From: Siphonodentalium dalli
Lineage: Eukaryota; Mollusca; Scaphopoda; Gadilida; Siphonodentaliidae
DNA length: 64,000 bases
Assembly (NCBI GenBank): GCA_032622095.1
Contig: CP136061.1
Coordinates: 6,334,734-6,398,733, forward strand
Reading direction: 5' to 3'
Under the pieces are notes generated by a model, which saw nothing but the letters and a program-made list of their open reading frames with translations, was not told the origin of the DNA and did no database searches. Positions 10,701 through 45,123 of this stretch are shown piece after piece. How positions within the stretch are numbered: position 1 is the first letter of the stretch; every line of letters starts with the position of its first letter. A program made the position numbers and the translations under genes.

Positions 10701-11275
10701 CACTACTGCACACAAACCCATTAAATGACCATTAAATAACCATTAATCAGAAGTCATTAAAACACCATTAAAACACCATTAAAACCCAATTAAAATCCCA
10801 TTAGAAAAACCTCTTATTCGTTGTCCTTTAAGTGCCATTAAATTGCCATTAATACGGACCATTAATGGGCATTAAATCCAAAAATATTTAATGGCATATA
10901 CACAATATGTGTTAATGGGCATTAATTATTAAGTATCGATTAAAGGCCATTAAAACAAATTAATGGGTGATGACATCTGTTAATGGGCATTAATTTCCCA
11001 TTAAAAACCACTTAAAGGACAACGAATAATGCCCATTAAAATCATGGCCATTAAATATTTGTAATTGTCATGGCCATTAATTTTTGCAGAAGCATTTTCA
11101 TTGCTATTAATGGGCATTAATTTCCCATTAAAAGTACTTTTTACTTTCATGGCCATTAATTTTATGACCATTAATGACATTCCACATTTTAATGGGTTGA
11201 ACTTATTTTTACTTTAATGGCCATTAATGAGATTTCGAATGGTTTAAAATAATGGCCATTAAATATACCATAGCA
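10701..11275. repeat. Left subterminal repeat array of the CACTA element
   Basis: Dozens of copies of CCATTAAA/TTAATGG and the palindromic form TTAATGGCCATTAA occur in both orientations. The first 100 bp are nearly all in the CCATTAAA orientation; further in they mix. A perfect 19-bp inverted pair (ATTCGTTGTCCTTTAAGTG at about 10817, its complement at about 11010) makes a larger fold. By analogy with plant CACTA elements, such clusters are accessory-protein binding sites; function here is inferred. Confidence 0.85.
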
Positions 11276-13096
11276 ACCATTAACCAGGGCTGGAATTTTG
11301 TAGGCAGGCTGCCCGCGGCCTACAGCCCATGCAAAATTATTTTAGGCGGGCAATTGATAGCCCGCCTAACTTCTAAGTTTGACTGGCAAAGTCGCGAAGT
11401 TTTTCAGAACAAAACTTCAAAGGTCGACACCGCCGACGAAACACCAAAGAGACTGTCGGTTTAATCGAAGTTCCATCGCTGAAACAAAGACTAATTCGTG
11501 TTTATTGTCAACGGAGGACCACGTGCTATCCCGCACATCACTGTTATGTGTTGAAGTATCACTTTGAACGCCATTTTGTTCTGGAGTTGTAATTTTTAAC
11601 ACCATTCTTGAAATTTTGCGAGACCTCAATGGAATCGAAAGTTGTTTATTCACGTAAACTTTAAACAAATAAAAAAATTATTTGTAAATGAAATCAATAA
11701 ATTTTATAACTAGAAAGTCAATGTTTTCCGCAGGAATACTTTGTCAATTTTTATAACACTTAGTTGATTCAGTGTTGTACGGGTCAATATTAAACAATTT
11801 CTGAAGAATTTGTTATTGAATTTAGAAAATGCAAAATGAGTTAAATTTCGTGGAATTTCCGCAGACAATATTAATACAAATGTATAACAATCTGACGGGA
11901 AAATTGGGACAAATCTTCCGAATAAATTATTTTCATTCAACAGGTCTGGTATGCTGTTTAATATAATTTATATATTTTTTGGTTGAGGAGGCTTACTAGC
12001 GTGATCACCTGATCACAAGATACTAGGATATCTGTTACCTAATATGGTTTAGCCTTCCACTCGAATGATATCAGTGTGTCATATTCAAAGCACACAATAT
12101 ATTATTCCTATTGTCTCGGCATTGCCTGTTTCAATTATGAATGAGCTTTATTCTTATCAATGGGGAGTTGGGATAGGTACTATTGTACACTCCCACTCAG
12201 TTATAAAAGTATACATATGAATAGTCTGGAGGGGTGTTCATGAAACCAACAGGAAACGACATGAATACAGAGTCTATAAATCAATCGCATCAAACTAGAC
12301 AAATAGCCATTTTGCACCAGCGTTGCTGAAGACAAATCTGAAACTATGGGTTCCAATAATGCTCCAGACCAAGTTTGAAAGAAATACACCCTGTGGTTCT
12401 TGCTAAGATTTTTTAAAGTTGCACCAAATTAGTCCTCTTTTGCCCATAATTAACATATTGACCTAATTTTAACAAACATGAATACCAGTCATCCAATTAG
12501 CAAGGCACTTGCACACCAAATTTGAGCAAAATCGGCCAAGTGGTTTTGTAGAAGAAGTCGTTTAAAGAATTGTTGACAGACTAACGCATGAAGAGTGACG
12601 ATCATAGATCCCCTCGATACTTTGTAGACGTATCAGGCTAGGTGATCTAAAAATTATGTTTAAAATTCTTGACGAAATGAACACAAAATCATTCAAATTT
12701 TTTATTTGCATATCTTTTATGCAAATTTTGTTCTCATGCCTTAACTCTTTCATGATGGGAGCTGTGCTGGTGCAGCATTATAACCCTGTGCCAGTGCATT
12801 CTCTTATATATAAGAGAATGCACTGGCTTACAAGATCAAGGTAAATATTGTTAGGCCAATTGATGGAATCTCTTTTATATGCGAGGCGCCCTATGGGCGA
12901 CTCGAATATATAAGAGAATGCATTGGCACAGGGTTTTTCGACTCTCCATGACCATTTATGTTAGGAAGAATAAAATATAAAAAATAAAATTTGCCCTCCC
13001 ACCCCAGTTTTCTGAAAAAGTTGGATGTAAATCTAGCAATTTATTCTTATTGGCCTTATGAGGAATATACACACCCGAGGATGAAATTGAATCAAT
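11276..13096. other. CACTA interior, left part, no supported gene
   Basis: Short open frames at 11252-11668 overlap each other on both strands and show no family resemblance. From about 12330 to 12650 the sequence is a minus-strand copy of the dispersed repeat best seen at 33247-34070 (phrases AAACCCATAG-like, GGTCAATATG and GATTTTGCTCAAATTT in reverse). At 12784-12933 lies a diverged palindrome MITE: CCAGTGCATTCTCTTATATA, a second half-palindrome, and CATTGGCACAGGG. Confidence 0.6.
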
Positions 13097-13097
13097 A

Positions 13098-13925
13098 TTA
13101 CATGGTTACGAAATGAGATTTGACAAATGTTGTGTGAACCTGAATCGTGTGAACGCCATTTGTCGAAGTTCACTTCGCAACCATGTAATAACATTGAGAA
13201 CGACAATCATTTGTTAACTATTGCCAGGAAGTGCAAATCAACAAGGGAGTGGGTTTAAGTTCTATGCATGCGTAACATGTATATACATGTGGAGGAGCGT
13301 AGACAATTGCATGATGGTCTCCAGGAAATAAACATAAAACGGTAGGTTTATAATTGCATTCATAGGCATGTCAGCACAAATATTTGAATGCAAAATCTTG
13401 AAAAATGATCGTATAATTATTTCTTCGAAAAATATTGATATTGTAATTTTAATTCACACACAGGAATTGATTTATCTTAAATATTTTAATAAATTTAATA
13501 AAATCACTCCATCGGTCGTTGAGTTATAGACCCCTGAACCAGATATACCCTTCTGGATGAATTGCCACCCACACATGACAGATAAAGTCGCTGCAAAAAA
13601 AGAAAATCCCTCCAATAAAAAAAAAGTGATTACAGATTCGGAACTGACTTATGTCAGCTTCAGCATGACACATGCATGATGCATCGTGAAAAAAGGCACA
13701 CTAGATCTAAAATTATAAGCCATCGACTGCACATACCCCAGTACCGTAACAAATGCGGTCTGCCATTTATCAGTGAGTGCTACATCCTTACCTGTGCCGT
13801 CATGTTTGGTAGGAAAATTATCCACGCAGGTATTTCTGGTTCGGGGTCTATAACTCTGATAGACTGATTTTAATAAATTTGGTATCAAATTAAATCAATT
13901 CCTGCAATAAGATATCAATTTTCAT
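13098..13925. repeat. Two foldback repeats in the CACTA interior
   Basis: The first (13098-13190) has arms ATTACATGGTTACGAAATGA and its diverged inverse. The second (about 13433-13925) has arms of about 140 bp that share ATTGATTTA, GAGTTATAGACCCC and ACATGACxG motifs in opposite orientation. The open frames at 13649-13888 lie in these arms and are not supported as genes. Confidence 0.6.
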
Positions 13926-13996
13926 GACGTGGTGAAAAACGGCAGCACCAACCGCTAGCTAGTTCCCTATATATAATATATACTATTCCACATGTA

Positions 13997-14370
13997 CCCC
14001 GCTGGACAAAACAAGTGTCCATTGGCACCGTGTTGTATTTGCCGTTCGGCTGCGGTGTCAGAGTTTGTAACTGCAGTTGAACACTGCGGCCGAACGGCAA
14101 GTACACTGCGGCCAAACGACAAATTCACTGCGGCCGAAAGGCAACTACCCTCACGGTCGAATGGCATGTACACCGTGGTTAGATTTCTGGTTTGTATTGT
14201 ATTTTTTCAGTTTGATGAAAGTACACCGTGGCAAATACACCATGCTGAATGGCAATTACACCGCGGCCCAACTGTAGTTAGCCGGTGGAGCCGCGTGTAG
14301 TTGCATGTCGGCCGCGGTGGCAATGCTAACCGCACCGCAGTTAAGTGGACACTTGTTTTGTCCAGCAGGG
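13997..14370. mobile_element. 374-bp TA-flanked MITE with GC-rich internal repeats
   Basis: Inverted ends CCCCGCTGGACAAAACAAGT and, complemented, CCCTGCTGGACAAAACAAGT, each flanked by TA (13995-13996, 14371-14372). The interior differs from the surrounding AT-rich DNA: degenerate units of about 22 bp of the type ACTGCGGCCGAACGGCAAGT are repeated directly, then in complementary form. The several overlapping short frames on both strands (13915-14300) come from this repetition. Probably a Tc1/mariner-type MITE by its TA flanks. Confidence 0.7.
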
Positions 14371-15530
14371 TATATACCCATATTAAGTGTTCGTAAACCC
14401 ATTTCCGCATAGGGTTGCAAAGTTTTTGCATAAAATATTCGCCCTGAGATTTATATGGACGCAATATATAGACATACCATTTTGTTTATTTCCTGCGACC
14501 ATCTATTCTACACTCCTGATTAGATCACACACAGTATCCGACAATGTTCATGTGATAAATGTGTTTACCATTGGCATCTAATTGTAATATAATGTAGAAC
14601 ATTGTAACAACTGTGAATAAACTTTATTTTAACAAGGAATCAAACGAAACAGCGAACATGCTCATTATTTGAGAAGATAAAACTAACAGAACATGAATTG
14701 GGATTTTCATGCCAACTCAAACATACAAGATGGATTATGCGCAATTGCGTATTTATCATGAAAGGCAAATAAAAGCTTTGATTGAATAGATAATTAAATA
14801 GTAAGGACAGAGTATATATACATAGTTGCATAAAAAAACCCAAATATGTATTTCTCTGGATATACTTAGTCGTCAGTCATTCCATATACCAAAAGAAAGG
14901 GCATTGTCTAAGGAACATTGTGCCAAAAAATGTAGTTGTTTGAACCATGCAAAGGAAAAGAAATCATTCCTGAAATCTGACCACAGACGGTCATCGGGAC
15001 GACAAAGTCATTTTTTTCATATGGTCAATAATGTTATTTTACGGGTTTGTCATTAACATTGACACCATATAGACTTGAAATTTTGACCTTTGGAACCAAT
15101 CCTATGTGAAGAGCTTGTGGTACACTTTATGAAGAAACTTCAAATAGTATGTGAACAATAAATGCATAAGATAGTTCTGAAATTTCTGTATATTATGAGC
15201 TGAGACTTGGAAAATATTGTTTTTGTTCCAGTTTATCAATTTTGATATGTTATGAAAGGGTTTTCATGCAAATATTTGGTCCACCAAATTATTGGGCTGT
15301 GTATGTCTTTCATTGATCTCGGACCTCTTTTTATATGAGAGTAGATGACTAGCTAGTAATACTGTGTTCACTGGGGCTGCTAAATCATCAGGTTGACTAT
15401 GGGGAAACTGTGACCCAGTTCATGGTCTAATGTCATGTCGCATGTCATTTCTGGGTTGGTGGGTGAAGCATTGGGCCAGGCATAATTGTGTATTCTGTAA
15501 ATAAACTAGAGCTGACAGGGCGGCTGGGAC
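14371..15530. other. CACTA interior, no supported gene
   Basis: AT-rich sequence with only short, uncorroborated open frames (for example 14826-15056). No family motif, no clear splice-bounded exon, and no strong repeat structure was seen by eye. Confidence 0.5.
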
Positions 15531-16213
15531 GCTCACCTGACCACAGGACCCCTGGTGCGACAACACTACCATAAGTATATACATGTACCTTAATACAAGG
15601 TTTATACATGTATCTATCGGACCTATATTGAGCATAGACTCACTTGCAATCTAATTTCATCAATATCCTCTGTACATAAGATAATGTCACATCCCCAGTT
15701 CTTTTGACCATATTCACACCTTTAATTTGGTGTATCTAGATCTCTTGCATCGATACGTGTACGATCACCAAAGATATATCTGAATGTGTGCACACTTTCA
15801 AATCCAGACAAACCCTTGAACAGATTCCCATCAAATATAGCATACTAGTAGTACTACTGCAGAATTCCACTTGTCACAATAATTCACAATGGATGGTCCT
15901 GTCTGTGTGACCTCAGCAGAGTAAATTCTGCAGTGCTACTGTGCTATATTTGATGGGAATCTGTTCAGGGGTTTGTCTGATTTTGAAAGTGTGCACATAT
16001 TCATAAATATCTTTGGCGATCTTCCACGTATCGATGTGGGAGATACACCAAATTAAAGGTGCGAATATGGTCTAAAGAACTTGGTATGCGGCATTATATT
16101 ATACACAGGGGATATTGATGAATTTTTATCGCAAGCGAATCTATGCTCAATATAGGTCGGATAGATATAAACCTTGTATTAAGGTATATACTCATGGTAG
16201 TCGCCTGTGCACC
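15531..16213. repeat. Long foldback repeat (about 680 bp)
   Basis: Arms of roughly 300 bp. The left arm has CCTTAATACAAGGTTTATAC, CCTATATTGAGCATAGA, ATCGATACGTGTACGATC and CAGATTCCCATCAAATATAG; their complements appear in reverse order from 15940 to 16205. The loop is near 15870-15920. Arms differ by several substitutions, so this is not recent. It is bordered by CTCACCTGAC on one side and CACCTGACATGGTGTAG on the other, phrases that also end the dispersed repeat at 34520-34560. Confidence 0.75.
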
Positions 16214-16369
16214 TGACATGGTGTAGTGCCTTAAGCTTCATATTTCTATCATTGCATGCGATGCTAATTTGTTGAGCATGATTAACCCAGTCATACATAA
16301 ATAAATTATAGACTATAAGATAAACTGTTATATATGATGAATTTGTGATCACAAACAGTATTTGAACCC

Positions 16370-16590
16370 AATTGCCAGCGCCTAATTAACCAATCGAGCC
16401 TATTTCAACACGGATGCCCTATCACCAAAAGTATATAGACACAAAGTTTTTGAGCAAAATCGGCCAAGGGGTTTTGGAGAAGTCATTTGAAGAAATTGTT
16501 GACAGACTAACGCATGATGAGTGACGACTATAGCTCACCTTGATACTTTGTATCAAGTGAGCTAAAAAGTGTTTTACAACTTGGGTCTTC
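16370..16590 (-). repeat. Dispersed repeat fragment (minus copy of the 33247 family)
   Basis: Reading the minus strand, the phrases TTAGCTCACTTGATACAAAG, GTCGTCACTCATCATGCG and CTTCTCCAAAACCCCTTGGC match the start of the copy at 33247-33400. No coding capacity seen. Confidence 0.7.
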
Positions 16591-16649
16591 AAAAGTATTT
16601 ATATTTCGGGTCTCAGCTCATAACATACATAACTTTCAGAACACACTTA

Positions 16650-18812: not shown

Positions 18813-18851
18813 CTTAAAAATTGTCCCAAATGTGTACTCTACATATTAATA

Positions 18852-20343: not shown

Positions 20344-22010
20344 TTACAAAATGTTGGTATTGCTCATATACATATCAAACTTCTGTTTGAATGTTTCATA
20401 AAATTTGCTCTCGTCAAGATCATCATCAAATCGAAGTAGTCCTTCTTCCAGGTTTAGTTTGTAATTCATAACACAGAACTGCTCATCGATGTCGTAGGCC
20501 ATATCCCGCTGGTTAAGCTTCTTCGATTTTGGGTCATTCACAAAAGTTAATTTTTTGCTGACATCGTCTATTTTAGCAATCGCTTTGTTGCAATTGATAA
20601 GGTATTTGATTCCACGGTCATTAACTATTGTTTGGCAAAGATAGAGGTCTCCTGCTGCCCATTCATATATGGCTACACAAACCCTCTCTGAATTTGAAGC
20701 TTTCTGCTTAATTTCCTTCTCTATCATTGAATTAGGCGACTTTTTGTTGTCAATCACATCACTTTGTTTGGCAACGGTTGATGTCTTTATATTAAGCTTC
20801 TGCGTTGTTCTCTCTGAATTTGAAGCTTTCTGCTTAATTTCCTTCTCTATCATTGAATTAGGCGACTTTTTGTTGTCAATCACATCACTTTGTTTGGCAA
20901 CGGTTGATGTCTTTATATTAAGCTTCTGCGTTGTTCTCTCTGAATTTGAAGCCTTCTGCTTAATTTTCTTCTCTATCATTGAATTAGGCAACTTTTTGTT
21001 GTCAATCACATCACTTTGTTTGGCAACGGTTGATTGAACTGATGCCAATTCATCAATTACTTTCTCTGATGTCTTATTAATTATAAGCTTCTGCGTTTTT
21101 TTCTTCTTTTCTTTACCAGTGGCCCTCTTCTTGTTATCAGAGTCAGACTGCTTCTCTGTTTGTCTTATTAATTTATCTTTTTTAGCTAACCTTTCTGTCC
21201 AATATAAAATCCTACCAATGTCTTTGTGCAATCTTGTACCGGTCCCGGTACTACCACATCCTGAAGGTAACTCCATGTCATTTTCATCAATATCATTTGT
21301 CACAACAGATTTAACAACAATTTCAGAAAAGAGATCCGAACTGGATAGAAGGAATATACCAAGTCCAATTTTCACATTCCTTTGTCTATTTAAAAGAACC
21401 ACTTCATCCCCTGCTTGGTAACGCAGACAACTTTCAGAACTTTGGGGCATTTTTTCAATGTTTTTTTTGGTCCCTCGCTTCCCATTTGTACAGTCTTGTG
21501 TGTACTTCCGCCTGTTCTGCAGTTGTTTCCCAAGTCTTTTGAGAACGGTGCCCCTTTTTTTTTTCAGCTGAGGAAGAACATTAAATACTTGTTCGAAAAA
21601 ACGTTCTCGTCTTGAACTTGGTAACGCAGACAACTTTGGGGCATTTTTCCAGATTTTGGCGTTTACTGCAGCATCCTTCAGAACATTGGTAAAGAGCTTC
21701 TGTGCCAGTGTTGGTTTCCCTCTTAGAGGTTTCATCTGCAGTAATTCTTCTTCAGAAAATTCATTATTGACATCGGTACATGTATTAACTTGAGCATCGA
21801 GTGAGGATACATGTAATTCATCATTAAAACTAGTGTCACCATTTACTTGAGTAACTGGACTACTCAAAATATCAGACTCGCCATCTGTATCGGTATTAGT
21901 GTCCTTGCAAAGAAATTTTCTTATCTTATGTCTGTCCCAGAAGTTTTTGAACAAGTCCAATATGTCTGCTTCAGTGAAATTTAAGAGTTGCCATAGTTGG
22001 ACTCCATTTT
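20344..22010 (-). CDS. CACTA-encoded accessory protein candidate (long terminal exon)
   Basis: The longest minus-strand frame in the window. It stays open upstream of the first start-like codon (TTG at 21960) to an acceptor-like CTCTTTTCAG whose last base pairs with 22011. It is best read as a 3' exon beginning NGVQLWQLLNFTEADILDLF. The first start exon was not found. The N-terminal half is mixed acidic then basic, with a Lys/Arg-rich helical stretch around residues 100-160 of the frame from 21960 (KKKRGTVLKRLGKQLQNRRK). Residues of about 305-425 are three tandem 42-aa units (126 bp each, starting 20691, 20817, 20943; core TVAKQSDVIDNKK..NSMIEK.IKQKASNSE). Two units are almost identical. The C-terminus (MYMSNTNIL) is acidic. 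I recognise no domain. Its location within the element and basic character suggest a DNA-binding partner of the transposase, as TNPA is in plants; this is inference. Confidence 0.7.
20691..21035 (-). repeat. Three 126-bp in-frame coding repeats
   Basis: The period is exactly 126 bp, a multiple of three, so each unit adds 42 residues without a frame change. The two units nearest the 3' end of the gene are nearly identical; the third differs at a few bases (NKKLPN and EKKIKQ instead of NKKSPN and EKEIKQ). The + strand frame at 20669-21037 is an antisense shadow. Confidence 0.9.
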
Positions 22011-22300: not shown

Positions 22301-24566
22301 GGGTTGCCACGACTGAGTTTTCATAATCAACTGTTATAGTCGACGGTTAGTCGATTAATCGTTTATATGTGGCCTATATTGCACCTGGGCAGGTAAAGAC
22401 GTGATCAAATCGAAATTACAATGACTACAATACATTCAGTCTGAACACAGTTATAAACTGTCAATCAGCAGGCTTGTCATTCTGAGGCACCCACCCGTCA
22501 TCGGCCACCTAAACTCAAATTTACGCAGCAGGTAAACGCCCTCTATGGGAGGCCAAATTCACATTTAATAATTAATTGTGCTTAAGCGCAATCAATTGCG
22601 CTTAAGCGCAATTCATGGTTATATGTAACAAAACACCCCTGGTGAATAAATAGGTTTCTCCATAACTTAGCATTAACTCCTATTGACATGTCACTTCTTG
22701 GTTTCATTGGTTTGGATGGGTAGGGAGCTAGCCCAACTTCTTTATCAAAATGGCTGACTCGCAATAGTATCACCTTCTGTTTTAGTTGGAGCGATTCGTG
22801 ATAGCATTATATTATCTTCGGTATATATTAGTTGGGGCTACTTGCAATAGCATTACTTTCTGTATTAGTCGGGGCGACATTGATTTTCTTAAATTTTCGA
22901 GTATACAGGCACACCATATGAGGGAAGCAAGCCCTCGGTGACACCACATTCACACTATATGATCATGGAAATACTATAGATTTGTGCAAGAGCTGCTGAT
23001 TTAATAAGAAAAACTAGAGCTTCAGGACTGAGACACCAAAGCTCCAGTAATTACACACCATTTTTTGGACAGGGATGCTGATAATATGAAAATAGGGTTT
23101 TTCCCTCTGATTTAAGTAAATAACTAAACCATACAGTAATGCTCTAATTAATCGACTCCTTAACCACAGCAGAATTATGGATAACTTTTCAGGATTTAGT
23201 CGGAAATATGGCTTGTTGCCATTCATCGGAAAGCTCTCGAGAGCTTTTCGATGAATGGCAACAAGCCATATTTCCGACTAAATCCTGAAAAGTTATCCAT
23301 AATTCTGCTGTGGTTAAGAAGTCAATTAAATAGAGCATTACTGTATGAGGGAAGAAAGCCCTCATGCAGTGACACCGCATGCATGTATAGGATATTACCA
23401 TAGTAAAGGCTAAAATCTGTGCAAAAATACATTAAAAACATCATACAAAACATTACTAGAGTTCCGGGAAGGCGACATCAATTCTTTGGATAGAGGGATG
23501 CTGATATGTAATTAGGGGATTCTCCTTGTTGAACACATACTCACAGTTTGACTGTTGAGTACAGGTCAAAATTAGCCCAATGCTCATCTTGTGTTGCTAG
23601 GTGATACACCAGGTCATGCTAATAGTTTATGGGTGGGTTAGATAGTAGTCACAATTACGCTTAAGCGCAATATGTGGTATTTGCGCTTAAGCGCAATTCA
23701 TTATTAAATGTGAATTTGGCCTCCCATAGCCCTCCTCATCGCTATTCCCGCGGACGAGAATTGTTTTAAATATCTGTCCAGTCAATCAATGTTACCTGTG
23801 AACATGTATCGCGGTCACAGCGACAAAACATGAAAGCATGCGGATTTGTCGCATACTTATTGAAAACGGACTATAGTTATGTTTGCAGAAAATCCCATTG
23901 TGTACCGATTGCTTCACCTGACACATTATTTTATTTCTGTTATTCAAATTGCATGCAACGCATCGTGCAGTAATGGGGTGAGGGGGGGTATATATGTTAC
24001 CAAGTTGGAGAATGTAATGTATGTAGCACTAATAAGTGATGACATCAATTTGTTATTAACTGTCTAGTAACACTAAACAATCCATGTCCCGCGAACTTTA
24101 TGACTTTGTCAATTATTATCAATAATGGTGAACGTTTTACAGTATGAAATTTGAAGAAAAAAAATATATAGATGAGTCCATTTTGGATATGTTGATCGCT
24201 AACTACAGATCCATAGGAAGATAGGTTTACATTTAAACATAATACATAAACAATGTCAAGTCTGTAACACCGAACCCTTTGAAGATGACCGCCACACATT
24301 GGCTGCGTTATCAAAGGAAGCCGCATTAGAAGTGGCGACAGTAGGCTACAGGCTGTCGGGTGGTAAATTGCGCTACAAACACTGTTAACTTTTACTTCTA
24401 GGCATGGTATTTGCGCATAGTACTGCTTAAATACACAACCATACCCCACATCACACCCCCCCCCCCCCCCCCCCCCCCCCCGGTTGGGCGATTAGTTGAC
24501 GAAAGTAAATAACCGTCGACTACCGCACCTGCCGAAGGTTAGTCGAATGATCGTGGCAAGCCTAAG
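22301..24566. mobile_element. Nested 2.27-kb non-autonomous element, hAT-like
   Basis: CTAATGTA lies at 22293-22300 and 24567-24574, an 8-bp candidate target duplication. Just inside are inverted ends: GGGTTGCCACGACTGAG on the left and, complemented, GGCTTGCCACGATCATTCGA on the right, with TAGTCGAC-type motifs beyond. A second inverted pair lies inside (about 22535-22620 against 23650-23740; GCTTAAGCGCAAT motifs, GGGAGGCCAAATTCACATTT). No transposase frame was seen. The left end is about 4 nt shorter than the right, so the boundary is tentative. It contains the Tc1-like MITE at 23134 and a 26-nt poly-C tract at 24456-24481. Confidence 0.55.
23134..23343. mobile_element. Tc1/mariner-like foldback MITE, copy 2
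   Basis: A 210-bp hairpin flanked by TA (23132-23133, 23344-23345), starting CAGTAATGCTCTAATTAATC and almost identical to 9979-10193. Its centre is the palindrome AAGCTCTCGAGAGCTT. It lies within the hAT-like element, so it arrived later. Confidence 0.85.
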
Positions 24567-25401: not shown

Positions 25402-25405
25402 TTAA

Positions 25406-25776
25406 CCCTTTACCCAACAAACCGGCCAAATAAAGCTTCAACAGCCTAAAATATCTTCGGTCTGTCTCAATAGAACCATACAAATATGGATATCATTGGA
25501 ACCGGCTCCTTGACCACATTGTGATATTTACAGTTATGCCCTGTGCCAATGCATTCTCTTATATATGCGAGTCGACCATAGGTCGCCTCCCATATATAAG
25601 AGAATGCATTGGCCTAAAAAAAATCTTTTTTTAACACTTTTTACTATTTTTTCTTACATTTTATAATTTTTAATGTGTTAAGCCAATGCATTCTCTTATA
25701 TATGCGAGGCGACCTATGGTCGACTCGCATATATAAGAGAATGCATTGGCACAGGGCCGTTCTGTTGGGTAAAGGG
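25406..25776. mobile_element. TTAA-flanked palindrome-pair MITE, reference copy
   Basis: TTAA at 25402-25405 and 25777-25780. Ends CCCTTTACCCAACA and TGTTGGGTAAAGGG are inverse. A left arm of about 135 bp (CAACAGCCTAAAATATCTTC, CCATACAAATATGGATATCA) is followed by two palindromes of about 70 bp, each GCCAATGCATTCTCTTATAT through GTCGACC/GGTCGCC to the inverse, joined by an AT-rich linker. TTAA duplication and CCC ends fit piggyBac-type MITEs. No coding capacity. Confidence 0.85.
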
Positions 25777-28700
25777 TTAAGCCATGATCACCGACAGTAC
25801 TGCATGTTGCAGGATTTTGATTTGGAGCACTGCTGGGCAAGTGCCAACAAAGAATCAGTCAGCACACTGGAATTTAAGACCACGTCTTTTTAAAACCTAA
25901 ACATGTCTCGATCCCGATAACACGTACTTGTGCAGCAAAATGAAACAGAGTTACAGAGGGTTAAAATTTACACATCTTAGCTTGCACGTGGTTTGGTGTC
26001 TTCAATTCGATATAACTACGGAAATTGACAATTTTTCTTGATAAATTTTGCCACAATCGACCGCCCGCTGCAGTTGGATCTAAGGTTCTTTCGGTTCTCG
26101 TTAGACCATAGAACAATTGACTTCCCGTAAGTTTCATGACTTCCGAATCCATGCACATTCATCCATAAAATTGTTCTCCCAACGTGATACCATATGGTAG
26201 TAATATATATATATATATACTAGGGTTATAACCTGTGGAGCTGCGAATTCCATTTTCGCCGAATCATTTTCAAGTTTCCTAATTTCGTGATATTGCGACT
26301 TTGACAATTTGTAAAAGTCTTTTAAAAAAGAAAATCTCGAAAATGTACAGTTATTGTTATAGTACAGGGCGGATTTCCCCCAGAATTTAATAAACGTACA
26401 GACCCGTATAACATCGTACAGGGGGGATTTTTTTCTATGAAATTAATAAACGTACAGGTACGTTTATTTGGCACGCGAGAGAATATGGAACTGTCTCAGA
26501 TGCCGCGTTATGTAATATCGCTGCGAATGTAAACAACACATGTTTCAGACATCGAAAAGTCCGAGTGGGCAGCATTTTCTTTTAAATTTGACATTGAGTT
26601 TCGGAGTAGGGCTGGACGATATTAACGAAAATAAAAACCGCGATTTTTGGAAATTAAAACCGCGGTTAACGATATAATCGCGGTTTTTTAAAACATCAGA
26701 TACTAGTAACTTAAACAGTTTCTCACTGTTCGCTAGAATCACATCATTGTCATTAATTTTGACAAGTTGACGTCAATAATAACATACCTGTACACAACCT
26801 TTCAACCAGTGACAACCTCATGCTCGCATCGATATTCGGAATGAAAAGTAAATTCACTGGTTAAATTCCGCTATTCGGACAATTTCTTTCCGGTGACTTG
26901 ACAAATTCTGGTATATACCGATAATTAATAAAACCATTATCTAGTCTATGCCAAAACTAAAAGTGTTCTATACTATACAGTATCCTTTTCTAACTCGGTA
27001 TATTCAACTATGTTGAGCAAATACATATGTTGTTCCCGATGACACTTGCGTCGCTTGACAAATGGAATATGGTTTACCGTCAAGACAAATTTTAGCGAAG
27101 TCCACACACACGTAGTACATAACTTTTGGAATTCGGCCAAGCAAGGACACCATGTATTTTGGGCGGGTTTGAAGCCCTAATTCTATAATATTGGTTTTAA
27201 CCAATCGCCGTGAGTGGTTTCTTCTAGACGAGAAGGGGGCGGTATCTTCGCTCATTTACTATTTTGATTGACGGTGCATGTGCATCATTGTACTGAAGGA
27301 AGAGACATGGCAAAACTGACATTCATATTGATCTATCACCCGATCAGTCGTCAATTCATTTGGTGAATTCTCTTGTAATAAAAAGTACGCAGGGAAGTCG
27401 GAGCGTTTGTGTAATATTGTGAGCGAAAGGGGGACGTATTCGGGGTTTTCGTATCCCCTTAATTTTGTTAGTCGTCCTAAACGTTGTTTACTATGATTTA
27501 TATTGAATATTGAAAAAGTCAGGACACGGGGATTTAGTTGGAATTTAAAACTTAAATAACTCGATTTAGGCTTGAGTTAAACTATTTGTTTGTATACGCT
27601 TATGATGGTCTGGCACCCTCTAATTGCCGACGATATTACGATTATTTTAGTTTAGACGATATTACTGACGATATTGAAATATTAACCGGGTATTGACAAT
27701 TAATCGGGAAACCGCCCAGCAGGCCAGCACTATTTCGGAGCACTCCTTTACTAAGGCCAAAACAAATTTAATGCGTGTTTCCCGTAACCTGACTGACCAT
27801 CTTCAAAACCCCCCGACCCAAGTTCATTTTATTGGTTTCAAAGAAAAAAAATCAATCTATAAACAGACCGACTGCACTGTTAACCAAATTGTGTACACAT
27901 GGTTACATTTTACCTGTATCTGATTCGCCCCGCGAGATAAATTATATCTTTGATATATTTATATATTTTTCGCAAACCCACATCGTCACTCTTCAAATGG
28001 AAAGTCAAATTACGACCAGACGCTATACCGGAAGATCATGAGTTATCGTTCCTCTTCGCTGACCGGAAGCACGTGTTTGTGTTGATATGGAGTATTTATA
28101 TTAAACATGGATGTTCTCTGAGGTTGATTCGAACCGAAATTTGAATGCAGGAACAAGTTCTTTTCAACGATAGCGGTCGCACATGGGTCGATTCCCATGT
28201 GCATAATTCACGACTGCTGTGGCAAAAAAACCCGCATTTTAAAGATAACAGAAATCTGTTTTATACATGTTTCCCCTCAATATATCAGTTTTATCACCAA
28301 TTTGTTGGTTACTCTGGCAATATATATGGCATTTTAATCAGCGATGTTCTCCGCAATGCAATTGCGAGTGTACTTTGTTTGTATAAGACTACAAATGCAT
28401 ACTTAGAATTTACTAGTAAAGGCTATCGCATATCTTGTGGTGAATGCTGAATGAAACTGACTATTATGAAATACTTTGCTTGTTCTGAGTCCTGCAATTT
28501 GCGGGTGGGGGCACACGTTTGTGATTGTTAACCACGCTCTGGAAGTTTGATGAAACTTATTGTTTCCGTAACATTTGATTCCTTTCTTTAGGAACCGCCG
28601 GCGGTCCAACGCGTTCATTCCTACTTTTATATTATTGGATATGTGGCTATTCATTAAAATGAAATAGTAATCGCCACGTTCGTTCTAGTGAACTCACAAA

Positions 28701-30020: not shown

Positions 30021-30029
30021 TGTGACAAT

Positions 30030-30469
30030 GTGCGCGAATTGTTGATTGTTGATCAAGAAAAAGAACAAATTATATCAGCATATATGTATAAATCTAGGAA
30101 AAGACCATGTGGCTGTAAGCGTTGTAAATACCATCGCTCTCAACATTACAGTACCGTACAGAAACATTTGGTCGAATTTGGCAAGTATAATGCCAATGGA
30201 ACTTCTGACATTGACAATAAATTGAATAAGTTTAAGAATAACGTTGTTGATGTTGTTATTGTGGACAATGAAAGTATAAGTGATACTGATAGTGAAGATA
30301 TTCAGTGTGATGATCTTACCAGTACTGATGATGAATCAACTACCAGTACTGATGATGAATCAACTGATGACATCATGGAGTCGATGGACCAAAGCATTTC
30401 TAATAATGCTCTTGTTGCCAATGTTGGCACTACTGGACATTCAACCAATTACCAAACCAGCCTTACCAG
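30030..30469 (+). CDS. CACTA transposase, first identified exon (N-terminal Cys/His domain)
   Basis: The frame opens after TAA at 29970 and reads to a donor at 30470 (CCAG/GTGAGAAC), phase 2. The base at 30030 begins a GTG codon and not a true start; the first ATG in frame is at 30084, so either translation starts there or an upstream exon joins. The peptide has PCGCKRCKYHRSQHYSTVQK followed by HLVEFG, close in spacing to the Cys/His-containing Transpos_assoc domain at the N-terminus of plant TNP2 proteins. It then has a very acidic tail with DDEST repeats. The final 30 bp resemble the end of the next exon. Confidence 0.75.
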
Positions 30470-32586: not shown

Positions 32587-32706
32587 GGACACTGGTATGG
32601 ATCATGCGGGTGATGGATCGACTATCGGTGCTGCATGCCAGGACCATAGCATTGCTAATGGTACTCATAACTGTACTGCTGGACATTCAACCAATTACCA
32701 AAGCAG
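32587..32706 (+). CDS. CACTA transposase, small middle exon
   Basis: 120 bp between TTTTTGCAG (acceptor at 32585-32586) and AGCAG/GTGAGAAT. It enters and leaves in phase 2, so it joins in frame to both neighbours, encoding DTGMDHAGDGSTIGAACQDH and ending GHSTNYQS. ACATTCAACCAATTACCAAA and the adjoining donor are shared with the end of the previous exon, so this exon arose, at least in its 3' part, by duplication. Too short for detection by length alone; support is phase, splice sites and shared sequence. Confidence 0.7.
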
Positions 32707-34778: not shown

Positions 34779-37485
34779 CTCATCTGAAAATGACAAGTCT
34801 TCTGTTGATTCATCTGACTCTGAAAACATGGACAGTGATGGATCTGGAGAATTTGAAGCCGACGTTGAATCAGAATGGTGTTGTCGGTATGACCAAGATA
34901 TTTACAACTCACATGTGGCTGATGAGAAAGTAACAGAAGATTTAACAATACTACAGTGGTTGGCGATGAATTTTCACCTATTCGTTCTCCACCCTACTAT
35001 GAGCAAAGCAGCCTTTAGTCATATTCTGGAGATGCAAAGTGTGCTACATCATGACAAAAGTGTCATGCCAAATTCTTATTATAATGCACGCAAGATTATT
35101 GAACCATTTCTTATCAAGAAATTTGTTTACCATGTCTGTGTCAATGACTGCATAATATTTAGAGGAGAGTATGAAGACGTTGAAATTTGTCCAATTTGTA
35201 AGGAGGAAAGGTACAAGATGGACAGATCTAGATCTATAGCTAGTGGCCGAAATAAAAACAATTCAACAGGACGTCGCAGATTTGTGTACATTCCTATAGG
35301 CCCGAGAATTGCAAGAATGTTTGGTGAAGTGAACCTGGCACAGCTGGTACAATCCCACCCTGGAAACACTGATACATGTAGTGATGGTAAAATGTCTGAT
35401 ATTCATGATTCGCCAATCTGGAAGGAGCTGTATTCTGTGCAGGGTCACTTCAAAGGTGACAAAAATGGGTTATCCTTTGCATTGGAACTGGATGGTGTCA
35501 ACCCGTTCCACAATATTGGTGCTATATACTCTATGACTCCAATTATGCTCACATTGTTAAACCTACCGAGACATGTGAGGAACGCATTCGGAAACATAAA
35601 CCTTGTGGGAATAATTCCAGGAAATGGACGTTCAGAAGCAAAAAACATTGATCCTTACATTGAGATCTTAGTCGATGAGTTGATTTTCATTTCTGGCTAC
35701 TCGGCATTTAATAGTTATGAAAAAGCTCCTATAGAGGTGAAAGTGAAACTTCTGCTCTTTGTTTTAGACTATCCAGGCCTTTCAAAACTTTTTCATCAAC
35801 AGGGAAGTGGTAGTTTGTCTGGATGCCATTGGTGTATGGTCAGAGGTAGAAAATGCAAACATTTAGATAAGGTTATTTACTTGTCCAACAGATCTTTTCT
35901 GGATACAGGAGATTCTCTGAGACTTGATGATAAAAATTTCAGCGTAAAGTCGACCGATTTTTCTGAGAAGCCAGACCTACGCGATTCAAGAAATGAGTTG
36001 GCCTACCGTAAAGCATTTCAAGGGGCATCAAATAAAACAAATTCAAATAAAGTTGCTAGTGCGACAGGCTGCAAGAGTACATATCCTTTAATGCGTTTAC
36101 CAGGACATTCGAGAATTGAGAGCACCCTGCCAGATGCATGCCACACCATAAAGGATGCAATACAGAACATTATGAATGTTATAGTACAAAACAAAAAAGT
36201 TAACATGGCCAAAGTCATAAGTGCTGAACAGAATTATGGTAGGCTTCATAATTCAGTATTGGATGTGGTAACTTCTGATGATGGGCCAGTATGTAAAAAG
36301 AGGAAGTTGCAAAAACCAGAACTTCCATATGTGTTGACAAAATCTGAGTTGAATATCGCTGACCAACGTGCAAGTAGTTTAAGGGTGCCATCTGACTTTG
36401 GCTTGAAACCGTCCAAATTCATTTCAAATACCAGCAGCTTGAAATCACACGACTGGAAACAGTTAGGCTCTCAAGAAATTCTAAAGTTTTGTCTAAAAGG
36501 GGCCCTTGAGCCACGATGTAGAGGAACGTTATTTTCCCTACTTGATTGCGTGGCAGACATGTGTCAGGAATGTTTGTCTATTGACGATATCAATGACTTG
36601 AAAGTAAAAATCAACACAGCACTAGCGCTACTGGAAAGAGACTTCCCACTACACATACAGAATATAACTACACACATTCTGCATCATATTCCAGAGGGGA
36701 TGGTCCGATATGGACCTGTGTACAGCACATGGATGTGGGTCTATGAACGCTTCAATTCCTGGATTTGCAAACGTGTACAAAACAAAAGATATCCGGAGGC
36801 AACTGTTGTGGAAACATTTCTCATTCATGATTGGTGTAACTTCATGATTTCTTCGGGTCGACTCCCATTGCATGCATTGAAGAGCTGCTCAATGTTCACT
36901 TCGAGCTTTTTTGATGATGGTGATGCAAATAATAGTAAACAGCGACAGAAACAATTATATGTGCTTAGAAGAAAAAAGCTTAAAAATTTACACAAACAGC
37001 TGGGCAAGGAAAATTGTGATGGAAAGTGTTCAGTGTATAGATATTTTGTTCACAAAGAATCAAATCCTAAGACAATGCGAATACGCACATACACTTCGCA
37101 ATCAAAAGAATTACTCTCTGCAAAAAGTATGTCGTCATTCATATGTGCAGAATTCCAGCGAGGAACGCAGAAGCAAAAGTTGTGTTCTGGAAAGTTTGCA
37201 TTCTTTGGTAGAATTGATTTCTTCGTTGAACATATGAGTGAAAATAATAGTGCAATCAACACACTTGCATTTGTTAATTGGTATGATAACATCAGAGTTG
37301 ACCATGACTCTGGTCTGTGGTACACAGACATGAATACTGCAGGTGGCAATTCAAAAAAATCTTTTATTTTAACAAAACTCATGTCGGATCCTCTTGTGAC
37401 TGCTGTTGAAGATGGTTGTCTGTGGTTTCTTGGTAATACACCCCAGCCTAATGACTTTAAATATAATCATACAGTGAGAGATTGA
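34779..37485 (+). CDS. CACTA/EnSpm transposase, TNP2 type, main exon
   Basis: The acceptor TTCTTTTCTAG ends at 34778. Phase 2 joins the middle exon, and the frame runs to TGA at 37483-37485. The spliced product from 30030 would be about 1,088 aa. Numbering from ATG 34828: CPICKEERY at 121-129; RRFVYIPIGPRIARMF at 150-165; ALELDGVNPF at 218-227; LNLPRHVRNAF at 244-254; IIPGNGRSE at 262-270; LDYPGLSKLF at 313-322; GCHWC at 332-336; LPDACHTIKDAI at 434-445; HDWKQL at 541-546; and a DUF4218-like segment with RYGPVYSTWMWVYERFN at 627-643. This order matches the Transposase_21 and DUF4218 regions of TNP2. Candidate catalytic acids are D222, D314 and E640, by analogy. No stop or frameshift breaks it. 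It cuts and joins DNA at the CACTA ends. Confidence 0.9.
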
Positions 37486-39050
37486 GTCATGGACCAACAA
37501 ATATAGGCAAATTTAACTGTATACATTACATTGTACTAAACCCATATTGATGTTTAGAGGCGTCATCACTTTGAGTAAGGTATACAGCCCGCATTTCCCC
37601 GGCCTCTGCTCGCTAAGACATTCGGATAGATAATGATGCTAGACAGATCGCCCGAGAGCACTCCCATAGGCCTCCTATAGCGGGATTACGTCGCCACAAA
37701 TGGTTTGTTCACATTTAGTAATTGGTGTGTTTTTTTTAAAGTATAGAGAAGACGATAAAATATATTAGCAATTGATGAGACAACTAAATCATTGACCAAT
37801 ACAACAGTGTAAATGAATTGTAAAGGTACGAAGCAAAGGATTTTTTACATTTATCGAGTGACATCCAAAATAGCGTTGAATGTAATATATATATAAACAA
37901 AGCTTTGTGAACTTAATTCAACTTGCTAGCTATATGGACAGCTAATTTACCAGGACTGTTGATGTATCACACATTGTAATCGGAAGACACTGATCTTTCC
38001 AACTATAGTACTATACCAGGGTTTTGGTTCAAGAATATCTGAGTGGAAATCCTGTTATAGGATGGCTACGGGAGCACTCCCGGGCTCTGTCGACCATTTA
38101 TATCTAACCGAATGTCTTAGTGAGCAGAGGCCGGGGAAACGCGGGCTAAGTAAGCTTTAGAGGCATTCTTCGAGTGTTCTTAATGCTACTGATCATGACA
38201 TGGTTACATGGTGAATGAGTCGATTTCATTGGATCAGTTTTAATAATGCAGTACATCTACCTTACTCGTATTTGAATTCGCGCAGTACTTTTAGCGTGAC
38301 CATGAAATTAAAACTGAGTGATAAAAAGTATGATACAAAAGTTTATCGATAATTTTATTTCAAATTCTATTAGATTCTTAGATTGGAACTCTCTATAATT
38401 GTTCTGTATTTCAGACGTCTGAAAGCAGTAAACTGACTAAATGTCGGAGAAATTATTATTATCGGAAATGGCATTACATTACAGGTGGTCTATATGTTCA
38501 CAACTTTCTAGTTCAAATTTGGAACTGATACTATGTATCCATGGAGCTGTCGTCCATTGTATATAAAATTGATTTACCTTTGCTATTCCCAGGAACACAA
38601 AATGTTGGGTAATAGTCTTTGAGAATGTGTTTGAACTTTGAAGTTTCAGATTTGCATGCAGTATATAGATACTATTATTTACGAGGTTTTTGTGGAACAT
38701 AAAATTATAGCAGCGTTCGCAGTTTTAAACTTTATCAGATCAATTGAACCATATATATGAGGTAACATGTCTTAAGATATACATCAAGCAACGAAGTATA
38801 ACCACTAAATTGATGTTCTGCACCTGCTATGATATTTGGCACAGACCACATTTCCATTCACTTCTACATGTATACCTTTTTGCAACATTTCCGCATGGAT
38901 TCTATATATTCTGAACAACTTAAAATAAAACTGTCAGCTTTAAATTCGCATCAGGGTGCGCGAATTCAAAATGTGCGAATTTAAAACTGAGTGAAAAATA
39001 GGTACTACATGTACATGTACGTGAATTTAAATACGAGTAAGGTATATAGC
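37486..39050. repeat. Downstream flank of the transposase with two foldbacks
   Basis: The first foldback (about 37575-38150) has arms GCCTCTGCTCGCTAAGACAT and CGGGAGCACTCCC with their inverses. The second (about 38255-39050) has arms CTTACTCGTATTTGAATTCG and TTAAAACTGAGTG. No gene is supported between them. I could not assign a poly(A) signal with confidence. Confidence 0.6.
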
Positions 39051-39139
39051 TTTATTGAAGACCTATTCCCAATAAAGGATAGAAAACCACATAATGCCTT
39101 AATTTCAAATTTGTATGGCAGACATGTGTCCATATAGAT

Positions 39140-39615
39140 TAAAGGTACTCAATCCGATAAAACTCCTCCCAATTACTATTTCAATGGCTTCGGGGGGTCA
39201 AAAATATTTGATTCGAGTCGAGGAAGTCACCCATCAAAGCTCAGATTTGTTAGATATCGATTTTAGAAATCTATTATTTTTCATTATCGGGAATACTTTC
39301 TGGCCCAGAACGCAGTCAAAATTGCGTTATTATTACCACTTGATTTTAGAGTTATCCATCCTTGTCTGTTTGAATAGAGTTTTGGTGTACACATCTCGAG
39401 CAGGATATGAAATTGACGGCAATTATTAGTATCTCGAGAATATAACAAATTTCAAAAATCAATATCTAATAACTCTGAGCTTTGTTTGATGGGTTCCTCG
39501 ACTCGAAGCAAATATTTGTTACCCCCAAAGAAATAGTAATATAGGACCCTCTGATCGGATTGTTGTTGTTGGAATCTGTTGAGATGGGGACCCTCTGTTC
39601 GGATTGAGTACCTTT
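39140..39615. repeat. Foldback repeat, about 475 bp
   Basis: Left arm: AAAGGTACTCAATCCGATAA, ATTCGAGTCGAGGAAGTCAC, CATCAAAGCTCAGATTTGTT. Their diverged complements appear in reverse order from 39450 to 39612. The frame at 39115-39429 is a by-product of the left arm and loop. Confidence 0.7.
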
Positions 39616-39779
39616 AAGCAACATAAATTGTTCCTGTTTTGACGTCAGTGTGTAATTAACACAGAATCGCACACTTGTGGGATGGCTTTGGTGCAGTATG
39701 GCACTCAATTTGACGACACTACCCCCAGTGCTTCATGACATCATAGACTCGTGCCATAACCATCAAAGCCTTCACACAT

Positions 39780-40800
39780 GTACAAGTGTAATGTGGGGTT
39801 CTGTGAAAGTAGGATTTTTGGGTTCGACTTGCAAAAATCTGTTTTCTCAACATATACATAGTGGCTCGGCTGATTTTGCTCAAATTTAGTGTGAACGTGC
39901 CTTGGGTGACTGGTATTCGGATTTGTTAAAATTAGGTCAATATGTCGATAAAGGGGTCGGGTGTATTTGGGTACAACTTTTAAAAAATCTTTTTTCTCAC
40001 AAACCACTAGGTGGAATTCTTTCATACTTGGTCTGTAGCATTATTGAAACCTATAGTTTCAGATTTGTCCAAGGTATCATGCTTAACTGATTTTAAAGGG
40101 CTAGCTATAGGGCTCTCTGAAAATAGGGTTTTTGGGTTCGACTTGGAAAAATCTGTTTTCTCAAGAAATACATGGTGGAATTCTTCCACATTCGGTTTGG
40201 AACATTAATGTGACAACTAGTATCAGATTTGTTTACCATTATTTTTTCTGGGCTTTTCAGCTCATTTCTAAAAAAAAAAATTTGGATTTAATTAATTTGG
40301 TTTTATATCTTGGTTTTTTGTTCTGACCCCCTTGATAAAGAATATATTTTTTCTTCAACGCCACAGTAGTCAAGTGGGCTCAAATTTGATCTGCAATATC
40401 TATGGGGGAGTAGAACTTTTGTTGAAACCACCTCAACATTAATTTAATAGACCCAAGGCCATAAAATTTAAACCCATTTGCTGACGCACATTTTGAAAAT
40501 ATTGTGTGTCACTGTGAAACTGATATTTGTTGAAATGAGTGGGTTGGTAACTTATAATGTGCGCCAGAACCTCTGGTGACAAGCCTGTGACTAATATTGC
40601 CATGAAAGTGCTTGCTCGATAAATTGAGCCCCCCAATCAAGTGACAATATATCACATTTTATCGTATAGTCTATATATTATATATCGTAAAGTTACTAAG
40701 GCTCGAATTAGTTTCTCCTTTTGAAAACAAGCATATAGCACCGACGCATGTCAGGTGAGCGTCCCAGCTGCCCTGGCGGCTCTAGTTTGAAAATACTATG
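39780..40800 (+). repeat. Second plus copy of the 33247-family repeat
   Basis: Phrases GGGTTCGACTTGxAAAAATCTG, TTTTGCTCAAATTTAGTGTG, AATTAGGTCAATATGTCG and GGTGGAATTCTT repeat the pattern at 33360-34030. The terminal CGCATGTCAGGTGAGCGTCC at about 40745 matches the other copy's end. Short frames here are shadows. Confidence 0.65.
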
Positions 40801-41363
40801 GTTGGCATCACATAATATAGCTATAGTGTATATCATATATATCAAACTATCCAATTAATAAAACACACTGATCATCAGACATGATTCCATTTCTATCCAT
40901 GAAAACTGTTTTGCTTTTGGGTTGTATTGGTATTTTATATATAAAAGCAGTTTAACAAGCTTAAGTTGCACAGGCACAACTTGTACATTCCAATTTATTT
41001 CATTAGAATCTAAAAGAAACCACATTTGGAAAGTGATGAACATCAATTTTCCTATTCCAATAAGATGGGGGTGTTAATTAATATTTACACTTCTACCTGC
41101 ACTTCTGCTACCGAGACTGAATCAAGTCTTCTGTTTGGTCAGGAACTGATCAGCTGATAGAGCAACCGTAATGCATAAAGTATGAAAGAAGTTGACACCT
41201 GCTTCACATGTGTAACGTAGCAATTACGTTAACAACGCGCCTGTCGCTTTTAACATTCTATTTTTCACTAGAAAACGGTGCAAATCACATGTGCAAATCA
41301 TTCATTTTATTCAATAATCGAAACAAATTTCCATTGAATGTTCTTTTTGGTGTGTAAATATAA

Positions 41364-41494
41364 ATAATGTTTCCTGTATTTCCATGCGTTATGAAATCAG
41401 GTTGGTCTGACAAAGTTATGTGAGGAGCGCTTCAGCGCTACACACTGCAACCTGCTTTCATACATCGATCATATCTAGAAATACAGGAAGCAAA
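41364..41494. repeat. Small foldback near the right subterminal array
   Basis: TGTTTCCTGTATTTC at the left and GAAATACAGGAAGCA at the right are inverse. The centre contains GAGCGCTTCAGCGCT-type palindromes. No target duplication is clear. Confidence 0.55.
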
Positions 41495-41509
41495 CTTTCA
41501 GTTCTTAAT

Positions 41510-42130
41510 GAGTTTGATGGGCATTCATTTTTCAAATTCTATGTTAATGGCCATTAACCACCATAGGTACATCATTTAGGGCCCTTAATTTTTTTATTAC
41601 TAAGTTAATGGGCATTAAACACCAGCACTATTGAGGTGATAGCCATTAATTTTTCAAAATTATTAGATAATGGCCATTAAACACCAAAATGCATATAATT
41701 AATGGTCATTAACATATAATTAATGAGCATCAAGTTTTCAAATCATACTTTAATGGCCATTAACCATCATGGATGTACAACAGTTGGTATCAATTTCTCA
41801 AAGTACTTAATTAATGGCCATTAAACACTCAAATACATATAAGATGGATAATAGCCATTAAAATATTAGAGACTATGGCCATTAAATTGTGGTCTTTACA
41901 AATTTTAAGGGCATCTAATGGCCATTAACAATACATTGTTGATGATTAATGGGAAATATGGCAGTATTGGCCATTAAAATAACAAAATGTAATGGTTTTT
42001 AATGGGTTCTGGGAAACCCATTATTTTTTTTGTTACAAGAATTAATGGCATAAAGTAATGGATTTATGATATTTAATGGAATTTTAATGGGATTTTAATG
42101 ATATTTTAATGGGTTGTGTGTGCAGTAGTG
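41510..42130. repeat. Right subterminal repeat array of the CACTA element
   Basis: About 620 bp of TTAATGGCCATTAA-like motifs in both orientations. They become mostly TTTAATGG toward the end (GGAATTTTAATGGGATTTTA), then TGTGTGTGCAGTAGTG. This mirrors the left array in motif and in the polarity change near the end. Confidence 0.85.
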
Positions 42131-45119: not shown

Positions 45120-45123
45120 TTAA

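What the first reader, a model, noticed from the sequence alone, without database searches (positions are those of the whole stretch)
10701..42130. A 31.4-kb CACTA (EnSpm) transposon in an animal-type genome
The ends start CACTACTGCACAC in inverse orientation, the flanks duplicate ATA, the subterminal DNA is packed with one short motif, and the interior encodes a TNP2-type transposase. CACTA elements are best known from plants and are usually several to about 20 kb; animal examples exist. This one is very long, encodes a second protein, and contains at least four bounded nested elements and many foldbacks. That the ends belong together is seen directly from the split MITE on either side.
Basis: partly seen in the sequence, partly recalled or inferred. 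Interest (0 to 1): 0.88.

Follow-up and report, generated by a model that had tools for sequence, protein, structure and literature searches.

The report
Giant CACTA transposon, recently mobile, animal
The 31-kb stretch is a real, very long "cut-and-paste" jumping gene in what looks like an animal genome; nearly identical copies of about 32 kb lie on other chromosomes, so the whole unit, with other jumping genes inside it, has moved recently.

Summary
Confirmed. Window 10701-42130 is a complete CACTA (EnSpm) element: 14-bp inverted ends, ATA duplication, subterminal motif arrays (27 and 20 motifs against 1 in the interior), a tnp2 transposase and a second, divergent gene. An uninterrupted paralogue of the insertion site lies at 9243-9498. 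The host assembly holds nine more convergent end pairs 31.7-32.4 kb apart; the six copies read in full differ pairwise by 0.01-0.2%. Twelve transposase copies near 100% were found, all twelve open. A nested hAT-like element with an 8-bp duplication is shared by the giants examined, so the composite moved as one unit. Identified nested elements explain only about 2.8 of 31.4 kb. Thirty older left ends (88-93%) exist; 27 face an exact end, mostly 5-9 kb away, without a detected transposase. Four of ten giant pairs have unmatched target duplications: misassembly or ectopic exchange. It is a CACTA of extreme size; up to 30 kb is printed for wheat. My searches listed no animal case of this size, but the main databases were out of reach.

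The parts
10701..42130 (+). complete giant CACTA element (31,430 bp)
   Evidence: ends, target duplication, empty-site paralogue, nine further whole-length pairs
10698..10700 (.). target site duplication ATA, left
42131..42133 (.). target site duplication ATA, right
10701..10714 (+). left terminal inverted repeat CACTACTGCACACA
   Evidence: 14 of 14 against the right end
42117..42130 (-). right terminal inverted repeat
10718..11290 (.). left subterminal array: 27 CCATTAA/TTAATGG motifs
41500..42112 (.). right subterminal array: 20 motifs
30084..30469 (+). transposase exon 1 (ATG at 30084), C-x-C-x2-C motif, weak Transpos_assoc match
   Evidence: PF13963 E 0.0069, below its cut-off; GT donor; start codon inferred
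32587..32706 (+). transposase exon 2 (120 bp)
   Evidence: AG/GT sites, phase-2 introns, open in 6 of 6 copies; no transcript data
34779..37485 (+). transposase exon 3: tnp2 and DUF4218 domains
   Evidence: PF02992 and PF13960; 909-codon frame open in 12 of 12 copies near 100%
20344..22010 (-). main exon of the second gene (ORF2), TNPA-like place in the element; upstream exons not located
   Evidence: 561-codon frame open in 6 of 6 copies, three differences, all synonymous; homologue on the opposite strand upstream of the transposase of a distant relative, E 5e-28
20684..21034 (-). 126-bp tandem repeat (2.8 copies) coding a 42-residue repeat in ORF2
26607..27732 (.). nested hAT-like element, target duplication TTTCGGAG
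   Evidence: 8-bp duplication in 6 of 6 aligned copies; 29 further genome loci at 97-99%
22543..23729 (.). nested element, 49-nt inverted ends, 4-bp duplication CCCT
23130..23347 (.). palindromic foldback inside the previous element
   Evidence: 109-nt arms 96% complementary; 93% to window 9977-10195
25402..25780 (.). nested MITE-like repeat
   Evidence: 98% to window 45120-45501; no target duplication seen
9243..9498 (+). uninterrupted paralogue of the insertion site, outside the element
   Evidence: 89% to the joined flanks

Best explanation
A two-gene, plant-type CACTA transposon that has grown to about 32 kb and still moves whole. Part of the growth is other transposons; most of the extra DNA is unexplained. 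Inferred mechanism: the tnp2 transposase cuts at the CACTA ends and joins them to a 3-bp staggered target. The product of the divergent second gene, in the role of maize TNPA (recalled), binds the TTAATGGCCATTAA-type arrays near both ends and brings them together across 32 kb. Imperfect repair of excision gaps makes internally deleted copies such as the window's and, over longer time, the short elements. Shown: ends, duplications, arrays, two conserved open frames, whole-length recent copies, nested insertions carried along. Inferred: gene models, binding of the arrays by the ORF2 protein, present activity, cut-and-paste chemistry, direction of the gaps.
For: Ten end pairs 31.4-32.4 kb apart; six copies read in full, 99.80-99.99% identical; matching 3-bp duplications in 6 of 10 pairs; empty-site paralogue; transposase open in 12 of 12 copies near 100%, three-exon model open in 6 of 6; three ORF2 differences, all synonymous; a 49%-identical relative with a CACTACTGCATGC end, CATTAA array and an ORF2 homologue on the opposite strand upstream of its transposase; nested hAT-like insertion in 11 of 11 giant copies listed and its duplication in 6 of 6 aligned; the 37 parsimony-informative SNP columns fit one tree.
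Against: 4 of 10 pairs have unmatched 3-bp flanks, so not every assembled copy is a clean single insertion. The nested elements identified add up to about 2.8 kb, so accretion of transposons is not shown to account for the size. One of two transposase differences among the six copies changes the protein (K393E in copy F). No expression data. The catalytic triad was not aligned to a reference. ORF2 has only sub-threshold Pfam matches, and its single-sequence fold was poor (mean pLDDT 40.3). A few source copies could have made all the others.
Confidence: 0.93

Rival explanations
1. The 32-kb copies spread mainly by segmental duplication or ectopic exchange, not by transposition of the whole unit.
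For: 4 of 10 pairs have unmatched flanks.
Against: In the forward-oriented copies compared similarity stops within about 6 bp of the CACTA ends; 6 of 10 pairs have perfect 3-bp duplications (A ATA, B TTA, E GAT, F TAA, C6a TAA, C6b ATA); the window site has an uninterrupted paralogue.
Confidence: 0.04
2. The giant is a non-autonomous passenger moved by a smaller autonomous relative.
For: Older elements with the same left end are more numerous than the giants (27 paired against 10).
Against: The transposase was found in 12 places near 100%, none of them in the 27 older pairs; the next best match is 49% (which scored 51 of 106 candidates). Eleven of the 12 lie with the 3-kb interior piece of the giant; the twelfth (C1:95.5 Mb) has the giant's right part.
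Confidence: 0.05
3. A chance pairing of two unrelated CACTA ends around 31 kb of ordinary DNA.
For: The 13-mer occurs 85 times and the reversed control 35 times in 2.23 Gb.
Against: Nine further pairs at nearly the same spacing, five of them shown to have the same interior throughout.
Confidence: 0.005

Closest known systems
Plant CACTA elements (maize En/Spm, soybean Tgmt* of 20.5 kb, wheat CACTAs up to 30 kb)
   Same: CACTA ends of about 13 bp, 3-bp duplication (Tgmt* also has ATA), subterminal repeats, tnp2 transposase, a DNA-binding second function; very large size in wheat (PMC2613891 and PMC4290129, passages seen)
   Different: animal-type host; two divergent genes rather than one complex gene as in Tgmt*; ten near-identical pairs above 31 kb
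Enlarged EnSpm and giant KDZ elements of algae (Chondrus EnSpm 16-20 kb; Ectocarpus EnSpm to 15.2 kb and KDZ to 30.3 kb; Chlamydomonas KDZ 31.7 kb)
   Same: giant DNA transposons; in Ectocarpus, nested insertions are generally fixed among copies that went on moving (PMC6431247 and PMC12477816, passages seen)
   Different: animal-type host rather than an alga with a long haploid phase; transposase frame open in all 12 copies found near 100%, whereas it is frequently a pseudogene in the Ectocarpus giants; about twice the Ectocarpus EnSpm maximum
Animal TRC/EnSpm elements (Hydra Spongebob, 5.8 kb)
   Same: CACTA superfamily in an animal
   Different: Spongebob has CCC ends, 2-bp duplications and a transposase interrupted by stops or frameshifts (PMC4298943, passages seen)

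Membership tests
CACTA/EnSpm superfamily | termini beginning CACTA, inverted | tested here: met
   14-bp perfect inverted ends
CACTA/EnSpm superfamily | 3-bp target site duplication | tested here: met
   ATA in the window with an empty-site paralogue; 6 of 10 giant pairs match, 4 of 10 do not
CACTA/EnSpm superfamily | subterminal arrays of a short motif at both ends | tested here: met
   27 and 20 motifs against about 0.5 expected
CACTA/EnSpm superfamily | transposase with tnp2 (Transposase_21) domain | tested here: met
   PF02992 E 9.6e-27, 94 bits, cut-off 28.6
CACTA/EnSpm superfamily | N-terminal transposase-associated domain | tested here: inconclusive
   PF13963 E 0.0069, 17 bits, cut-off 27.7
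CACTA/EnSpm superfamily | intact DDE/D catalytic triad | not tested
   no reference alignment of catalytic residues was made
CACTA/EnSpm superfamily | second gene whose product binds the subterminal motif | not testable with these tools
   a second gene is present, with a homologue in a distant relative; binding needs an assay
Maverick/Polinton or virus-derived giant element | viral-type genes (polymerase, capsid) | tested here: not met
   no such Pfam match among the frames scanned (2, 10, 43, 10, partly the same ones); only stop-to-stop frames of 70 codons or more were scanned, and not every one of these

The most novel reading that the evidence does not exclude
A diploid animal harbours an autonomous CACTA family of more than 30 kb whose whole transposase supply sits in giant composites that transposed whole within the last 0.1-0.2% of divergence, and whose copies already exchange partners by ectopic recombination, seen in the unmatched flanks of 4 of 10 pairs (in two of these one flank looks like tandem-repeat DNA and the other does not). 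That would be a natural test of the idea that ectopic exchange limits transposon size.
Probability: 0.25. Interest if true: 0.72.

Novelty: new variant of a known kind. Interest (0 to 1): 0.5.

Why it matters
Cut-and-paste transposons are usually expected to lose mobility as they grow (recalled). Here a 32-kb CACTA unit that carries at least two other transposons with target duplications gave ten nearly whole-length pairs, and the twelve transposase genes found near 100% are all still open. It offers a natural system for asking how two ends 32 kb apart are brought together, whether dense subterminal arrays make this possible, how passenger transposons hitchhike, and whether giant repeats rearrange chromosomes through exchange between copies.

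Tried and rejected
Tried without result: protein database searches (switched off, not made). Solved structures with the transposase: no match. Rfam at gathering scores: no match. NCBIfam with four proteins: no match. Pfam with three frames of the distant relative: no match. Transposase in viral contigs: no match. Single-sequence structure of ORF2: mean pLDDT 40.3, pTM 0.23, not used further. ORF2 had four Pfam matches below cut-off (best DUF2209, E 0.0067), not used. An HlyIII match of the frame 32520-32828 (E 0.00045, 20.4 bits, cut-off 26.2) was judged probable chance in a hydrophobic frame that overlaps exon 2 and intron; this judgement was not tested. The 8.5-kb end pair on C9 was rejected: an inverted repeat with no similarity to the element at E 1e-5. 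Exchange between the two subfamilies was looked for inside the six copies: the 37 parsimony-informative SNP columns fit one tree, so none was seen; exchange between sister copies would be invisible. The C/D pair was tested for swapped flanks: D-left and C-right share TGT, C-left and D-right do not match (GAC/CAC). The output for the two cross-joined sites was cut off before it could be read, so that test has no result. The left end of the 49% relative was not found in 20 kb upstream of its large transposase exon. Species identification from papers failed.

Questions left open because the genome search was busy: the genome-wide ORF2 search, the right-end search (41500-42130) and the repeat maps of 11291-14290, 14000-16999 and 38500-41499 did not complete.
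Full report
What was checked. The two ends are perfect 14-bp inverted repeats, CACTACTGCACACA, flanked by ATA on both sides. If the flanks are joined with a single ATA, the product matches an uninterrupted repeat in the same window, 9243-9498, at 230 of 257 bases with no break at the junction. This is direct evidence that one insertion put both ends there. The motif CCATTAA/TTAATGG occurs 27 times in the left 590 bp and 20 times in the right 631 bp, once in 30,209 bp of interior and 6 times in 26,827 bp of flanking DNA. In 2000 first-order Markov simulations of each end the mean was 0.56 (left) and 0.50 (right) and the maximum 4.

Genes. The large plus-strand frame holds the tnp2 transposase domain (PF02992, 9.6e-27) and DUF4218 (PF13960, 6.4e-12). 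GT-AG sites with matching phase join it to two upstream exons: 30084-30469, 32587-32706 and 34779-37485, about 1070 residues. This model is open, with the same splice sites, in 6 of 6 copies; copy E has an extra in-frame 9 bp, and copy F one amino-acid change (K393E of the 909-codon frame). The model has no transcript support. Exon 1 carries a cysteine motif with a sub-threshold match to the transposase-associated domain (PF13963, 0.0069). A second gene lies on the minus strand: a 561-codon frame at 20347-22029, with a likely splice acceptor just before 22010 and a 126-bp internal tandem repeat. In 60 second-order simulations of the element the longest open run was 206 codons. ORF2 shows three differences among the six copies, all synonymous: V81 is private to the window copy, P131 and S431 split the copies by subfamily.

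Other copies. The exact 13-mer occurs 85 times in the 2.23-Gb assembly (reversed control 35), and ten convergent pairs lie 31,430 to 32,365 bp apart. An eleventh pair, 8.5 kb, is an unrelated inverted repeat. I read six of the ten in full, the window copy and five others: 99.80 to 99.99% identical over 31-32 kb. Of 98 SNP columns 5 fall in the 4,914 bp of open frames; about 15 would be expected by length, but some of the 98 columns sit beside an indel and may be alignment noise. The 37 parsimony-informative columns fit a single tree with two subfamilies, A/C/D and B/E/F. The transposase search found 12 copies near 100%, all 12 open; the next best match is 49% identical (51 of 106 candidates scored). 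Two of the 12 lack an exact left end: C3:271.4 Mb, where similarity stops 1.5 kb short of the left end in tandem-repeat DNA, and C1:95.5 Mb, where the expected left-end region is not element DNA. The window copy lacks 304 bp present in the other five, and the A/C/D group lacks 478 bp of intron 2. Both breakpoints show short repeats (TACCC, TTC), as imperfect gap repair would leave; that these are deletions rather than insertions is an inference.

Nested elements. The stretch 26607-27732 is flanked by a perfect 8-bp duplication, TTTCGGAG, and has ends TAGGGCTGG and TAGTGCTGG. That is the pattern of hAT elements (family trait recalled). It matches 29 further loci at 97-99% among the 40 candidates scored (of 5,523), and it is present in the 11 giant copies listed, with the duplication intact in 6 of 6 aligned copies. 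A second nested element, 22543-23729, has 49-nt inverted ends and a CCCT duplication in 6 of 6 and contains a foldback. Two further stretches outside it, 25402-25780 and 12783-12938, match repeats elsewhere in the window. Shared by the copies examined, these insertions predate the spread of the giants, and the composite went on moving. Together they make up about 2.8 kb, so most of the element's length is not explained by identified nested elements. The other inverted repeats reported were not shown to be elements.

Older relatives. The left 590 bp find 10 copies at 98-100% and 30 at 88-93% (40 of 122 candidates scored). Of these 30, 27 face an exact 13-bp end in the right orientation; the distances run from 4.7 to 24.4 kb, median 6.9 kb, and 24 of 27 are below 9.5 kb. 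None overlaps a transposase match. Three right ends of this older kind were read, two of them belonging to the 27; they are 91-93% identical to the giant's. In the one short element of which I read 2.6 kb, similarity covers the giant's positions 521-1766 and then gives way to DNA without a match in the giant. The family is thus older than the giants' burst, and as far as these searches reach the giants are its only source of transposase.

A distant relative. Two loci with a 49%-identical transposase (C8:188.67 Mb, C1:18.82 Mb) share a right end CACTACTGCATGC with a CATTAA-rich array, 99.9% identical over the last 2,634 bp and different beyond. The C8 locus has an ORF2 homologue on the opposite strand upstream of its transposase (29% over 275 columns, E 5e-28) and a similar cysteine-motif exon. 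The two loci also match at 99.9% over 800 bp that lie 17.8 kb from the right end, so the element is probably at least that long; its left end was not found. The head-to-head two-gene plan is therefore shared by at least two lineages.

Unmatched flanks. Six of ten pairs have identical 3-bp flanks and four do not: C2:230.26 Mb GAC/TGT, C3:0.46 Mb TGT/CAC, C4:160.95 Mb TAA/ACT, C5:191.03 Mb TAG/ACA, in genomic order. On C3:0.46 Mb the right flank is a 25-bp minisatellite and the left 300 bp are not; on C5 one 100-bp flank looks tandemly repeated and the other does not. Reads shorter than the repeat can be misjoined between nearly identical 32-kb units, and this is the simpler explanation; true ectopic exchange is the more interesting one. 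I cannot separate them here. The window copy is not affected.

Comparison with the literature (passages seen only, no whole paper). Wheat CACTAs reach 30 kb (PMC4290129); soybean Tgmt* is 20.5 kb (PMC2613891); enlarged red-algal EnSpm are 16-20 kb (PMC6431247). In Ectocarpus EnSpm reaches 15.2 kb and KDZ 30.3 kb; nested insertions there are generally fixed among copies, and ectopic recombination is named as a limit on size (PMC12477816). An animal CACTA relative, Spongebob of Hydra, is 5.8 kb with CCC ends and 2-bp duplications (PMC4298943). My searches (I saw the listings) showed no animal CACTA of this size in title or abstract opening; that is weak evidence, as repeat databases and most subscription papers are not held.

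Verdict. A genuine, recently mobile CACTA element of extreme size in an animal-type genome. The superfamily is known; the size, the whole-length burst and the apparent restriction of the transposase to giants make it a variant worth following.

Noticed in passing
window 1-5743: 55-bp satellite array, about 104 units, 97% matches.
   Followed up: no
window 6780-7322 (+): Exon with a rabenosyn Rab-binding domain (PF11464, E 5.7e-16), the clearest host gene seen; the giant is inserted about 3.4 kb downstream of it.
   Followed up: partly
flanks of C6:123.29 Mb, C3:271.40 Mb, C3:0.46 Mb (right) and C5:191.03 Mb (one side): Several giant copies sit in or beside tandem repeats, perhaps a target preference; not tested against a background.
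   Followed up: partly
G000:C3:271400773-271433880: This left-truncated copy spans about 33.1 kb from its right end to the break, some 2 kb more than expected, so it may hold a further insertion.
   Followed up: no
L054:1-6428 (C8:188645761-188652188): Tandem array of a 1,499-bp unit with 100% identical copies next to the relative's transposon.
   Followed up: no
L037 (C9:168486901-168495401): 8.5-kb inverted repeat whose symmetry extends into the flanks and which carries the 13-mer.
   Followed up: partly
G000:C9:48043471, C8:10668221, C6:46721649: A third transposase lineage (47% identity) with three open frames of 903 codons; its elements were not delimited.
   Followed up: no
L057:1249-2600: The interior of a short family member is DNA without a match in the giant, so short copies are not all simple deletions.
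   Followed up: partly
window 48524-49263, 52186-54255, 61074-61548: Three further tandem arrays with units of about 63 or 179, 164 or 319, and 30 bp.
   Followed up: no
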